Shown one piece after another: positions 28,017-31,085 of a DNA stretch of 34,499 bases; within the stretch, counting starts at the first letter, position 1; every line of letters begins with the position of its first letter. Origin of the DNA: Prochlorococcus sp. AG-355-J04 (GTDB lineage Bacteria; Cyanobacteriota; Cyanobacteriia; PCC-6307; Cyanobiaceae); NCBI GenBank assembly GCA_003280885.1, contig QCDN01000010.1:1-34499 (forward strand), given 5' to 3'. Both the position numbers and the translations under genes were made by a program. The notes below the pieces were generated by a model. That model did not search any database and was not told the DNA's origin. It saw nothing but the letters and a program-made list of their open reading frames with translations.

Positions 28017-29075
28017 GTGAAAAATGGTGCGCTAATAATTGATGATCTGCATCATAAATATGATAAGCGAGAATGTTCAAATTGGATATTAAACGAAATT
28101 AACCTGAAAATTGAAAATGGCGAATTATTAGGTTTGCTAGGTCCTTCTGGTTGCGGAAAAACAACTCTTTTAAGATTAATCGCGGGTTTCGAATATCCTT
28201 CTAAAGGGTGTATTTCTTTAAATGACAACGAAATTTCTAGTAGAAAAAAAATTCTTAGTCCTGAGAAAAGAAATATTGGTATGGTTTTTCAAGATTATGC
28301 ACTTTTCCCACACTTAAATGTTTTGGAAAATGCAATGTTTGGTTTGAAAAACAAAAAAGACAGATCTAGAGTTGATTATTTACTAAATGTTGTTGGTCTT
28401 GATGGTTTTGTTGGAAGGTACCCACATGAATTGTCCGGAGGCCAAAAACAAAGACTCGCAATTGCGAGAGCTCTTGCTCCAGGTACAAATTTTATTTTAT
28501 TAGATGAACCTTTTTGTAGTCTTGATATGCATGTCAAACTAAAATTGAGAAGTGAACTTCCTAATATTCTAAAAGGTTGTAATGCAAGCGGATTGATGGT
28601 TACTCATGATCCGGAAGAAGCAATGTCAATTTGCGATAAAGTCGCCGTTATGAATGAGGGAAAAATACATCAAATTGATACGCCAATTAACCTTTTAAAT
28701 AATCCCAAGACCATGTTTGTAAGTAGTTTTATTTTGGGCAATAATATTATTAATCTCAAAAAAAACGGTAATTCATATATTTCTTGTTTGGGTGAAATAA
28801 ATAGTTCAGATTATTTGAAAAATACAAGTATCAAAAGTATGTCAATTTCGCCTAAATTTATTTCAATAAAAAGATCAGAAACTGGTAATGCAATTGTTAT
28901 ATCTAAAGAATTTCTTGGAGAATTTCTTATATATAAAGTAACAATTAATGGAAACATATTAAGGGTTAGGACTGATATTAATAATCTCCTTAATAATGGT
29001 GATAAATGTACTCTTTCAATTAATAAAAATAGTTATTATTTTTTATATCCCGGAGCATATAAGGAATATATTTAG
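28017..29075 (+). CDS. futC: iron(III) ABC transporter ATP-binding protein (FutC/FbpC-like)
   Basis: A 352-residue importer ATPase. Walker A GPSGCGKTT (42-50), Q-loop MVFQDYALFPHLNV, signature LSGGQKQRLAIARALA, Walker B FILLDEPFCSLD and the switch histidine in LMVTHDPEEAM are intact. The C-terminal 110 residues form the MOI/TOBE-type regulatory domain of the CUT1/Fbp class. Assignment to iron rests on this architecture and on the ferritin and Fur sites nearby; phosphonate, sulfate or putrescine systems are related alternatives. GTG is the start. The membrane and binding-protein genes are not in the window, as usual when fut genes are scattered. Confidence 0.82.
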   Translation: MKNGALIIDDLHHKYDKRECSNWILNEINLKIENGELLGLLGPSGCGKTTLLRLIAGFEYPSKGCISLNDNEISSRKKILSPEKRNIGMVFQDYALFPHLNVLENAMFGLKNKKDRSRVDYLLNVVGLDGFVGRYPHELSGGQKQRLAIARALAPGTNFILLDEPFCSLDMHVKLKLRSELPNILKGCNASGLMVTHDPEEAMSICDKVAVMNEGKIHQIDTPINLLNNPKTMFVSSFILGNNIINLKKNGNSYISCLGEINSSDYLKNTSIKSMSISPKFISIKRSETGNAIVISKEFLGEFLIYKVTINGNILRVRTDINNLLNNGDKCTLSINKNSYYFLYPGAYKEYI

Positions 29076-29220
29076 ACATTTTTTATAAGCAATTACACTT
29101 CCCCCCCTTCCAATTAGAGCATTTTTTCTTTTTACATTTCTTTTTTTTACTTTTATATATTTTATTAAGTAATAGAAGTTCAGAAATACTGTACTCTAAA
29201 TACATTTATAGTATTGCGAT

Positions 29221-29235
29221 TGATTTTCATTATCA
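29221..29235. promoter_or_regulatory. Fur box upstream of ferritin
   Basis: TGATTTTCATTATCA agrees with the 7-1-7 Fur consensus TGATAATnATTATCA at all specified positions but two. It lies 84 bases upstream of the ferritin start in an otherwise gene-free 237-base gap. The same gap also holds a run of seven C at 29101-29107 and no good terminator for futC. Confidence 0.68.
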
Positions 29236-29318
29236 TATTATTTAATTTAATTTAAAGGATTAATTTATTACTAATTTATACAAAATGTTGTATTATTTAT
29301 ATAGTTTCTTTTTTGAAA

Positions 29319-29873
29319 ATGATTGAAAATAATTTAAAAACAAAGAAATTAATTAATTTTGGTCCGTCTGGGAGAGCTGTTGCTCAACCGATAGATGATA
29401 GTTTACTGGATAATATTTTTGAACATCTAACTATGGAAAGATATGCTAATGTTCAATATTTTTCTATGTATCTCTGGTTTCAAGAACGTGATTTAAATGG
29501 ATTTGCGTATCATTTTTTAAGTGAATCACAAGGTGAAATGGAACATGCACAGAAGTTTGCAGATTATTTAATCGCAAGAGGACAAAGCGTAAAATTAGAT
29601 GAAATTCCTGCTCCCGTTCAAACGTGGGATTCAATAGAGGATCTGATTTCTTATTCTTTCAACATGGAGGCTGATTTAACTTCATCTCTGCAACAACTTT
29701 ATTCTATTTCAGAAAGAATTTCCGATACAAGAACCAACGTATTTTTAGATCCAATCATTGATGCTCAAACAAAATCAGAAGATGAATTTGCAAACATACT
29801 TGGCAAAGTAAAGTTTGCGTCTAATCAACCTTCTGCAATCTTATTGATAGATAGTGATTTAAAGAAAAAATAA
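29319..29873 (+). CDS. ftn: ferritin
   Basis: A non-haem ferritin that oxidises Fe(II) and stores the mineral in a 24-mer. I place the start at ATG 29319 (MIENNLK); a TTG six bases earlier is in frame. The ferroxidase ligands are recognisable: the glutamate in MERYANVQYF, the E-x-x-H of SQGEMEHAQKF, the glutamate in FNMEADLTSSLQQLY and the glutamine of IDAQTKSEDEF. The length, about 184 residues, is normal and there is no haem-binding sign of bacterioferritin. A Fur-like site precedes it. The last 15 bases overlap the convergent coiled-coil gene. Confidence 0.93.
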   Translation: MIENNLKTKKLINFGPSGRAVAQPIDDSLLDNIFEHLTMERYANVQYFSMYLWFQERDLNGFAYHFLSESQGEMEHAQKFADYLIARGQSVKLDEIPAPVQTWDSIEDLISYSFNMEADLTSSLQQLYSISERISDTRTNVFLDPIIDAQTKSEDEFANILGKVKFASNQPSAILLIDSDLKKK

Positions 29874-30155: not shown

Positions 30156-30743
30156 TTATAGCGGCGAAGTTTCAATAAAAGAAGGTGCAACACTGACTGT
30201 TTGTGTTCCAATAGGAGCTATTAATAACTCAGATGATCTTAATTTAGAAATTAATCTTGTTGATGTTACGCGTGTAGAACCGATTAATTCACCAATTCTT
30301 TCGTGAGTTAACCTAAAAGGTAACTCACACCATTGCCCACATCTCCTGCCTAAACGATTTACAAGTATTGAAAACAACGCTTGTAATCGCTGTTCTGCAT
30401 TTCCTAAGTGCCTTATCCTAAGGAGTTGCAAAGTCCATTCATTTACTGCATCGAAACCAATATTCTCATCAATATTCACATTGCTGTGAAATGACAAATC
30501 TGTTAGTGCTTCAACACAGACACCTTCGCTACATAAAAGGTCCGTTCTTAATTGATCTCCTGATTGTAAAAATGCGAGGGTCATTCCTTCAGTTTCTTCA
30601 CAAGGGCAATAAACTCTAGCAATTCCACTTTCAACTTCTAGGCATGTCCCTTTTGGTCTTGATGAGAGATCTATTAATACGGATTGTCCAGTTATTATCC
30701 TTACTGATTTTGACGGAGATTCTCCATAATTATGGAAATTCAT
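30156..30743 (-). CDS. Crp/Fnr-family transcriptional regulator, Fur-flanked
   Basis: A regulator of 195 residues when started at ATG 30743 (MNFHNYGESPSKSV). An in-frame start at 30776 would read through the Fur box and give an implausible hydrophobic leader (IIILIIILKL), so I reject it. The N-terminal part is a short, divergent cNMP-binding-like beta roll (CLEVESGIARVYCPCEETEGM, LAFLQSGDQL); residues about 100-120 form a dimer helix; the C-terminal winged helix has RLTHERIGELIGSTRVTSTRLISKL, a good HTH_Crp. Ligand-binding residues of CAP are not visible, and several cysteines in the N-half (C47, C49, C71, C76 region) leave room for a metal or redox sensor. Its promoter carries two Fur-like sites. 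Confidence 0.88.
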   Translation of the reverse strand: MNFHNYGESPSKSVRIITGQSVLIDLSSRPKGTCLEVESGIARVYCPCEETEGMTLAFLQSGDQLRTDLLCSEGVCVEALTDLSFHSNVNIDENIGFDAVNEWTLQLLRIRHLGNAEQRLQALFSILVNRLGRRCGQWCELPFRLTHERIGELIGSTRVTSTRLISKLRSSELLIAPIGTQTVSVAPSFIETSPL

Positions 30744-30755
30744 TAATTTAAGTAT

Positions 30756-30774
30756 GATAATGAGAATTATTATC
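30756..30774. promoter_or_regulatory. Fur box 1 of the Crp-type gene
   Basis: GATAATGAGAATTATTATC matches 17 of 19 positions of the Fur consensus GATAATGATAATCATTATC. It sits between the -10 hexamer and the start codon of the regulator gene, where bound Fur would block transcription initiation. Confidence 0.82.
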
Positions 30775-30775
30775 A

Positions 30776-30804
30776 ATTATGCACCATAAAAATACTTATT
30801 GCAA
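30776..30804 (-). promoter_or_regulatory. sigma70-type promoter of the Crp-type gene
   Basis: On the minus strand TTGCAA (30799-30804) and CATAAT (30776-30781) are separated by exactly 17 bases. The -10 abuts Fur box 1 and the -35 is overlapped by Fur box 2, the standard layout of a repressible promoter. The transcript would have a leader of about 25-30 bases. Confidence 0.65.
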
Positions 30805-30820
30805 TAGATTCTCATTATCA
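30801..30820. promoter_or_regulatory. Fur box 2 of the divergent region
   Basis: AGATTCTCATTATCA (30806-30820) has 12 of 14 specified consensus positions or one fewer depending on register. Its minus-strand half TGATAATGAGAAT is identical to the first 13 bases of box 1, so the two sites form an inverted pair. It overlaps the -35 of the regulator promoter and lies about 40 bases upstream of the TATAAT of the plus-strand gene, so it could serve both. Confidence 0.62.
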
Positions 30821-30896: not shown

Positions 30897-31085
30897 ATGA
30901 GCGTAAATAGAGTTTGTTTTAATTGTGGAAGTTCTTCATTTGTTTCAGATCGATCTTTAGGGGGTAAGATTGTATGTTCTAAATGTGGATCTTCTTCATT
31001 TAAAAATAAATCCTCTTCATTTTTAAAAAGTAAAAAATTAGTACTTCTTGCTATTGCGATAGCTATTTTCATAATTGTTATTTAG
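30897..31085 (+). CDS. zinc-ribbon plus C-terminal membrane anchor microprotein, 62 aa
   Basis: Residues 7-30 hold one zinc ribbon (C7-F-N-C10 and C27-S-K-C30, with GGKIVCSKCG), followed by a serine-rich linker (SSSFKNKSSSF) and a terminal membrane helix LVLLAIAIAIFIIVI preceded by lysines. This is a tail-anchored layout with the ribbon in the cytoplasm. No family is recognised beyond generic zinc-ribbon domains. It is divergent from the Crp-type regulator and shares its Fur-bearing promoter region; the 3' end overlaps the convergent ABC gene by eight bases. Function unknown; rubredoxin-like iron binding by the four cysteines is an alternative to zinc. Confidence 0.72.
   Translation: MSVNRVCFNCGSSSFVSDRSLGGKIVCSKCGSSSFKNKSSSFLKSKKLVLLAIAIAIFIIVI

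What the first reader, a model, noticed from the sequence alone, without database searches (positions are those of the whole stretch)
30755..30820. Inverted pair of Fur boxes embracing the promoter of a Crp/Fnr-type regulator
Seen: box 1 (30756-30774) matches 17 of 19 positions of the Fur consensus; box 2 (30806-30820) shares an identical 13-base half, TGATAATGAGAAT, on the opposite strand. Between and overlapping them is TTGCAA-N17-CATAAT pointing to the regulator. Known: Fur represses by covering promoter elements. Inference: iron loss switches on a second-tier Crp-type regulator, which may then act on other iron-stress genes. A Fur-to-Crp cascade would be compact and testable.
Basis: partly seen in the sequence, partly recalled or inferred. 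Interest (0 to 1): 0.78.

Follow-up and report, generated by a model that had tools for sequence, protein, structure and literature searches.

The report
Fur-flanked promoter of cysteine-rich Crp regulator
In ocean picocyanobacteria, a gene for a cysteine-rich regulator next to the iron-storage gene has a promoter squeezed between two old, strongly conserved iron-repressor-type sites, which suggests a two-step iron response in some of the most abundant photosynthetic cells on Earth.

Summary
Box 1 (30756-30774) matches the Fur consensus at 17 of 19 positions; box 2 repeats its half inverted; TTGCAA-N17-CATAAT lies between.

The pair is old. Over 126 distinct promoters of the window's Prochlorococcus genus the boxes are 99% identical, the rest 79%. 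In 40 loci of 36 other genera the outer site (over the -35) is present in 40, the inner site (after the -10) in 35. There the letters shift to TTGAGA-type halves, with the core of Anabaena FurA sites. Fur is the likeliest binder; binding is not shown.

The regulator is Crp-like, neither NtcA nor PtrA, found only in this family among 194 class genomes, with four invariant cysteines, tail-to-tail with ferritin.

Crp-type sites sit before futA (10 of 10) and flavodoxin (9 of 10) at near-fixed positions in the genus, less regularly elsewhere, and over the ferritin -10 in other genera. Fur-like sites there: 1 of 24 futA, 6 of 20 flavodoxin. I propose Fur -> regulator -> futA/flavodoxin/ferritin, like PhoBR -> PtrA. 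The second tier is inference; NtcA may own those sites.

The parts
30159..30743 (-). Crp-fold regulator gene ('CrpX', my label), 195 aa, with C34, C46-P-C48, C71-x4-C76, C135-x3-C139; stop codon 30156-30158
   Evidence: Crp HTH in Pfam/NCBIfam; predicted fold closest to NtcA; cysteines
30755..30775 (-). Box 1 (inner Fur-type site), directly after the -10 hexamer
   Evidence: 17 of 19 to Fur consensus; conserved in the genus and in 35 of 40 loci of other genera
30800..30820 (-). Box 2 (outer Fur-type site), overlapping the -35 hexamer
   Evidence: 13-base half shared with box 1; orthologous site in 40 of 40 loci of other genera
30799..30804 (-). predicted -35 hexamer TTGCAA
   Evidence: conserved in the family alignment
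30776..30781 (-). predicted -10 hexamer CATAAT
29313..29873 (+). ferritin gene, tail-to-tail with the regulator
   Evidence: Pfam Ferritin 6.7e-29; convergent within 2 kb in 145 of 149 loci of the genus (3 of the other 4 end at a contig edge) and in 32 of 40 loci of other genera
29215..29235 (-). third Fur-type site, TGATAATGAAAATCAATCGCA, between a mini-ORF (-) and ferritin (+)
   Evidence: Fur-type sites upstream of ferritin in 22 of 33 loci of other genera
28017..29075 (+). ABC transporter ATPase gene of the PotA/FbpC/PhnT type, possibly the FutC ATPase
   Evidence: no NCBIfam equivalog cut-off reached in the 25 families shown; the name FutC is inference

Best explanation
The two boxes are Fur operators that clamp the predicted promoter of a family-specific, cysteine-rich Crp-type regulator. 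With iron present, Fe-Fur on the outer site covers the -35 and Fur on the inner site covers the start region, so the gene is off. With iron scarce, Fur leaves and the regulator is made. The regulator then binds TGTA-N8-TACA-type sites, probably activating futA and flavodoxin and, in other genera, covering the -10 of ferritin; its cysteines may sense iron, an Fe-S cluster or redox state. Shown here: the sites, their placement and conservation, the protein family, the cysteines and the synteny. Inferred: Fur as binder (I would say 0.75), repression, the regulon (0.4) and the sensing role (0.3). The confidence given is for the two-tier reading with Fur on top, weighted between these.
For: Box and promoter geometry; chance expectation 0.09. 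Over 126 distinct promoters of the genus, box identity is 0.993 and 0.986 against 0.790 in the rest. Other genera: outer site 40 of 40, inner site 35 of 40; the distance from TTGCAA to the inner site is 21-23 nt in the 36 of 41 scored matches that were not the outer site itself, and 22 in the window. The most divergent orthologue read (57.5% identity, L377) has both sites plus a perfect TTGAGAAAAGATCTCAA. The core of the sites outside the genus, ATTCTCAATA, is in the Anabaena FurA consensus and in furA's own site ATAAATATTCTCAATAAGC (PMC4005646, passages). Ferritin adjacency. Second tier: an unbiased motif search of 33 ferritin upstreams yields TGTAtCAtaTGaTACA; that matrix scores above 40 of 40 shuffle sets before futA and flavodoxin, where Fur-type sites are found in 1 of 24 and 6 of 20. 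Precedent for a Crp second tier: PhoBR -> PtrA (PMC11098088, passages).
Against: No binding, transcript or iron-response data. Outside the genus the sites match the E. coli-type Fur consensus only a little better than shuffles (inner 10.2, outer 12.0, shuffles 9.2 of 19), and the Anabaena consensus moderately (11.6 and 12.0 against 9.5). The inner site is absent in 5 of 40 loci. The unbiased motif search returned the Crp-type palindrome from ferritin upstreams only: futA and flavodoxin upstreams gave other, mostly weaker motifs when searched alone. In the window's own genus no Crp-type site was found before the regulator or ferritin (27 and 35 of 40 shuffle sets did as well). The Crp-type consensus is also above shuffles before amt, an NtcA target (8 of 23 against 3.6), and is weak before the regulator in other genera (10 of 39 against 5.5). 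Whole-genome pattern scans did not single out iron genes. 5 of 10 flavodoxin upstreams of the genus carry a weak Fur-type match (0.7 in shuffles), so flavodoxin may be under Fur directly.
Confidence: 0.55

Rival explanations
1. Fur represses the regulator as described, but the regulator has no broad iron regulon; the Crp-type sites before futA, flavodoxin and ferritin belong to NtcA or another Crp-family protein, or flavodoxin is under Fur directly.
For: The sites are of the GTA-N8-TAC class; amt upstreams also carry GTA-N8-TAC sites (12 of 23). In the genus GTA-N8-TAC occurs in 10 of 10 futA and 10 of 10 flavodoxin upstreams; the exact match in futA lies near the assumed start. The closest solved DNA-binding domain is that of NtcA, so the two may read similar DNA. 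5 of 10 flavodoxin upstreams of the genus have a weak Fur-type match.
Against: Many iron-gene sites of other genera have TGTA...ACA flanks and a CA..TG core, whereas 8 of the 12 amt upstreams with a site read GGTA...TACT, 6 of those 8 from the window's genus. futA and flavodoxin are known as iron-stress markers (PMC12274634 for idiA, passages; PMC7170224 gene set, passages).
Confidence: 0.25
2. The boxes are bound by another Fur-family protein (Zur or PerR), so the regulator answers to zinc or peroxide rather than iron.
For: In the window's genus box 1 fits the RegPrecise-derived Zur consensus quoted in PMC9337993 at 14 of 16. A similar site lies about 0.9 kb from one of the two Fur-family genes found in this incomplete genome (C2:22071).
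Against: The orthologous sites in other genera fit the Zur consensus poorly (inner 9.1, outer 10.0 of 16; shuffles 7.7). The conserved neighbour is ferritin. PerR was not tested.
Confidence: 0.1
3. The conserved elements are operators of an unrelated regulator or of the regulator itself.
For: The outer site is conserved beyond what a Fur half-site plus a -35 would seem to require; the fit to known Fur consensuses outside the genus is only moderate.
Against: The boxes do not look like Crp-type sites, and in the window's genus they are good Fur matches at the same positions.
Confidence: 0.1

Closest known systems
PhoBR -> PtrA cascade of marine picocyanobacteria (PMC11098088, passages)
   Same: a first-tier nutrient regulator controls a Crp-family second-tier regulator in the same kind of organism
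   Different: here the first tier would be a repressor (Fur) and the signal iron; the protein misses the PtrA model cut-off (41.4 against 300 bits) and carries invariant cysteines
NtcA
   Same: closest fold among solved structures and closest solved DNA-binding domain
   Different: 29.9 bits against a cut-off of 244.95; N-terminal part matched by no Pfam family and rich in cysteine
FurA sites of Anabaena (PMC4005646, passages)
   Same: core ATTCTCAATA of the consensus; furA itself is listed with two sites
   Different: here one site lies on each side of the -10, at near-constant spacing
Tery_1663 of Trichodesmium, a putative Crp/Fnr regulator gene in a cluster up more than 100-fold at low iron; its locus tags adjoin isiB (PMC12090762, passages)
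   Same: a Crp/Fnr-type gene raised by iron loss in a cyanobacterium
   Different: not compared directly; the ten relatives from outside the family that I read lack the CPC and C-x4-C motifs

Membership tests
Fur-regulated promoter | near-palindromic Fur box above chance | tested here: met
   17 of 19; shuffle mean 0.09; this holds for the window's genus, the fit is moderate elsewhere
Fur-regulated promoter | box overlaps promoter elements | tested here: met
   outer box on the -35, inner box next to the -10; the promoter itself is only predicted
Fur-regulated promoter | conserved in relatives | tested here: met
Fur-regulated promoter | binding by metal-loaded Fur and iron response | not testable with these tools
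   needs footprinting and expression data
Crp/Fnr family | Crp-type helix-turn-helix | tested here: met
   PF13545 (30.4 against 27 bits) and PF00325 (25 against 21)
Crp/Fnr family | N-terminal effector beta-barrel | tested here: met
   by predicted structure only: pLDDT 85.2, strands over residues 14-90, whole-chain TM 0.70 to NtcA; no Pfam match for that part
NtcA or PtrA orthologue | curated equivalog cut-off | tested here: not met
   29.9 against 244.95 and 41.4 against 300 bits
Fe-S or metal-sensing Crp regulator | conserved cysteine ligands | tested here: met
   C46, C48, C71, C76, C139 in 45 of 45; C135 in 44; C34 in 43. In L377 C46, C48, C71, C76 and C135 are kept, C34 and C139 not
Fe-S or metal-sensing Crp regulator | bound cluster or metal | not testable with these tools
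   needs purified protein; coordinates of the model were not available to measure distances
Zur-regulated promoter | match to Zur consensus across orthologues | tested here: not met
   14 of 16 at box 1 of the window, but means of 9.1 (inner) and 10.0 (outer) of 16 in other genera, shuffles 7.7

The most novel reading that the evidence does not exclude
Picocyanobacteria have moved futA and flavodoxin, reported Fur targets in other cyanobacteria, to a second tier: Fur controls mainly a cysteine-ligand (Fe-S or iron-sensing) Crp regulator, which itself reads iron or redox state, activates uptake and flavodoxin, and shuts ferritin, giving a coincidence detector in some of the most abundant phototrophs.
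Probability: 0.27. Interest if true: 0.82.

Novelty: new variant of a known kind. Interest (0 to 1): 0.62.

Why it matters
Iron limits these cells over large ocean areas, yet how so small a set of regulators runs their iron response is poorly known. A conserved, Fur-clamped Crp regulator would give a concrete second tier, predicts target sites base by base, and makes the difference between direct and indirect Fur control testable in culturable marine Synechococcus.

Tried and rejected
Loose genome-wide consensus searches gave counts close to the reversed-pattern controls in many of the genomes and were set aside. In the three GC-rich genomes none of the 21 places lies at the regulator or futA places known, so no regulon could be read from this.

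Unbiased motif search returned the outer Fur-type site from regulator upstreams and the Crp-type palindrome from ferritin upstreams of other genera; the four futA and flavodoxin sets, searched alone, gave other motifs.

A first reading of flavodoxin and futA upstreams had wrong strand handling and was redone. In one search the inner-site count of 41 of 45 includes 5 loci where the outer site itself was matched; 36 lie at the expected distance; one search gives 35 of 40 for the chosen loci. Autoregulation through a Crp-type site 133-144 nt upstream of the start is plausible in other genera (best site there in 22 of 39), but only 10 of 39 reach the consensus threshold against 5.5 in shuffles, and it is not seen in the window's genus. 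That the Crp relatives outside the family are the same thing was rejected: the ten read lack the cysteine motifs. Rows dropped: 1 of 40 regulator and 7 of 40 ferritin upstreams of other genera were too short or had no ferritin match; the ferritin set may hold a paralogue (L104).

Papers: the searches listed none that I recognised as describing this regulator, and the passages I read in eleven papers did not; mentions an unnamed Crp-family transcript raised in dark phage infection. Thompson et al. 2011 is not held; Rivers et al. 2009 and RegPrecise were not looked up, so prior notice cannot be excluded.

Full report
What is in the sequence. Box 1 (30756-30774) is 17 of 19 to the Fur consensus and is the only place in the 34.5-kb window within three mismatches, where shuffles give a mean of 0.09. 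Its half TGATAATGAGAAT returns inverted at 30820-30808, and a third relative, TGATAATGAAAAT, lies at 29223-29235 (-) in front of ferritin. On the minus strand the order is box 2 with TTGCAA at its end, 17 nt, CATAAT, box 1, and the ATG at 30743. The hexamer pair alone is no better than chance; its weight comes from conservation.

Where it is. The window is contig C10 of an incomplete genome (1.1 Mb, 67.9% complete). The nearest named relatives of the protein are Prochlorococcus, among them strain MIT 9201 at 97%. The regulator (195 aa) lies tail-to-tail with a ferritin gene; an ABC ATPase gene precedes ferritin.

Conservation in the genus. The protein search hit 192 of 200 genomes of the genus at E <= 0.001, and 66 of 66 of the near-complete ones, but a part of the 192 rests on weak matches to paralogues only. 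I used loci with full-length orthologues from two collections, whose genomes may overlap; identical upstreams were counted once. Of 126 distinct promoters (from 156 loci with enough upstream sequence), box 1 is 21 of 21 in 114 and box 2 in 104; the weakest reach 17 of 21. Mean identity to the window is 0.993 and 0.986 in the boxes and 0.790 in the rest of the stretch.

Conservation in the family. From the orthologues listed I chose 40 loci of 36 other genera. The outer site TGAGAAYCRNTTGCAA is present in 40; the inner site TTGAGA-N5-TCTCAA (at least 9 of 12 at the right distance) in 35; those without it are L079, L080, L083, L091 and L100. The distance from TTGCAA to the inner site is 21-23 nt in the 36 such matches, and 22 in the window. 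The most divergent orthologue read (L377, 57.5% identity) has TTGAGAATGACTTGCAA, TTGCGAGTAATTCTCAT and, further upstream, a perfect TTGAGAAAAGATCTCAA.

Who binds. The letters of the window's genus are classic Fur letters. Those of other genera share the core ATTCTCAATA with the Anabaena FurA consensus; that paper reports that 20 selected predicted sites were confirmed by EMSA (passages). The scores there are moderate: inner site 11.6 and outer site 12.0 of 19 to the Anabaena consensus against 9.5 for shuffles; 10.2 and 12.0 to the E. coli type against 9.2. Zur fits box 1 in the window (14 of 16) but not the orthologous sites (9.1 and 10.0 of 16, shuffles 7.7). Two Fur-family genes were found in this incomplete genome. 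Fur is thus the best, not the only, candidate.

The protein. Pfam sees only the Crp-type DNA-binding end; the PtrA, NtcA and Fnr models of NCBIfam also match mainly that end and miss their cut-offs by far. AlphaFold gives pLDDT 85.2 and Foldseek puts NtcA first, TM 0.70. In 45 sequences C46, C48, C71, C76 and C139 never change, C135 changes once and C34 twice. The ten relatives read from outside the family, and the two family paralogues read, lack the CPC and C-x4-C motifs. Among 194 genomes of the class (21 of the family, 173 of others), the best matches outside the family reach E 4.9e-16 and 35% identity, against E 1.4e-70 or better for the orthologues listed. A metal, Fe-S or redox role of the cysteines is inference; I could not measure distances in the model.

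Second tier, for. An unbiased palindromic motif search of 33 ferritin upstreams from other genera returned TGTAtCAtaTGaTACA, which overlaps the likely -10 TATCAT (by eye). Scored with that matrix, upstreams of futA (14 other-genus, 10 same-genus) and flavodoxin (10 and 10) beat 40 of 40 shuffle sets, with the best site at -108 to -111 in 10 of 10 futA and at -87 in 9 of 10 flavodoxin upstreams of the genus (futA positions are relative to an assumed start). In other genera the best site keeps a similar place in 5 of 14 (-111 to -115) and 5 of 10 (-85 to -87). Fur-type sites (at least 12 of 16) are found in 39 of 39 regulator and 22 of 33 ferritin upstreams of other genera, but in 0 of 14 and 1 of 10 futA and 1 of 10 and 5 of 10 flavodoxin upstreams (other genera, then same genus).

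Second tier, against. Searched alone without bias, the futA and flavodoxin sets gave other motifs. The matrix finds nothing before the regulator or ferritin in the window's own genus. The amt control, an NtcA target, is also above shuffles (8 of 23 against 3.6), and exact GTA-N8-TAC occurs in 12 of 23 amt, 10 of 10 futA and 10 of 10 flavodoxin upstreams (the last two in the genus), so NtcA cannot be excluded. 8 of the 12 amt upstreams with a site read GGTA...TACT, unlike many iron-gene sites. The weak Fur-type matches in 5 of 10 flavodoxin upstreams of the genus leave direct Fur control open.

Known and new. A Crp-family second tier exists for phosphorus in these organisms (PhoBR -> PtrA; passages), and a putative Crp/Fnr gene cluster with locus tags next to isiB rises more than 100-fold at low iron in Trichodesmium, its mechanism called entirely uncharacterized (passages). 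Ten paper searches (listed under Tried and rejected) showed me no description of this regulator, but key subscription papers are not held. I file it as a new variant of a known kind: a Fur-clamped, cysteine-rich Crp regulator.

Noticed in passing
window 29083-29205, - strand: Mini-ORF of 40 aa with the core KKKxCKxxKCSxWKGGxCxC between the ABC ATPase and ferritin, too short for the ORF list; matched in distant genera (for example L092, L100, L110, L111, L112, L117) and preceded 9 bases upstream by a Fur-type site; a candidate iron-controlled metal-binding peptide.
   Followed up: partly
L375 1916-2470, L377 2401-2910; also listed for G297, G319 and G272: A second Crp-fold paralogue (about 30-35% identity; the two read lack the cysteine motifs) lies about 1-10 kb from the regulator in some genera.
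   Followed up: partly
30897-31085 +: 62-aa protein with a weak zinc-ribbon match below the Pfam cut-off and a hydrophobic end, divergent from the regulator in the window's genus; a conserved AATTATATT block lies in its upstream region.
   Followed up: no
flavodoxin upstreams of the genus, for example L177, L182, L187: GTATAAAATTTTAC followed 22 nt later by TAATTT (by eye), the layout of an NtcA-type class II promoter as I recall it; the best Crp-type site is at -87 in 9 of 10.
   Followed up: partly
L197-L199, L202, L207, L210, L215 and other futA upstreams of the genus: A second GTA-N8-TAC site (GTAACCATAGATAC) close to the assumed futA start, the motif that the unbiased search picked in this set.
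   Followed up: no
G000:C2:22071-22097: Overlapping Fur/Zur-type palindromes about 0.9 kb from a Fur-family gene (C2:20818-21156), perhaps the zur/znu locus.
   Followed up: no
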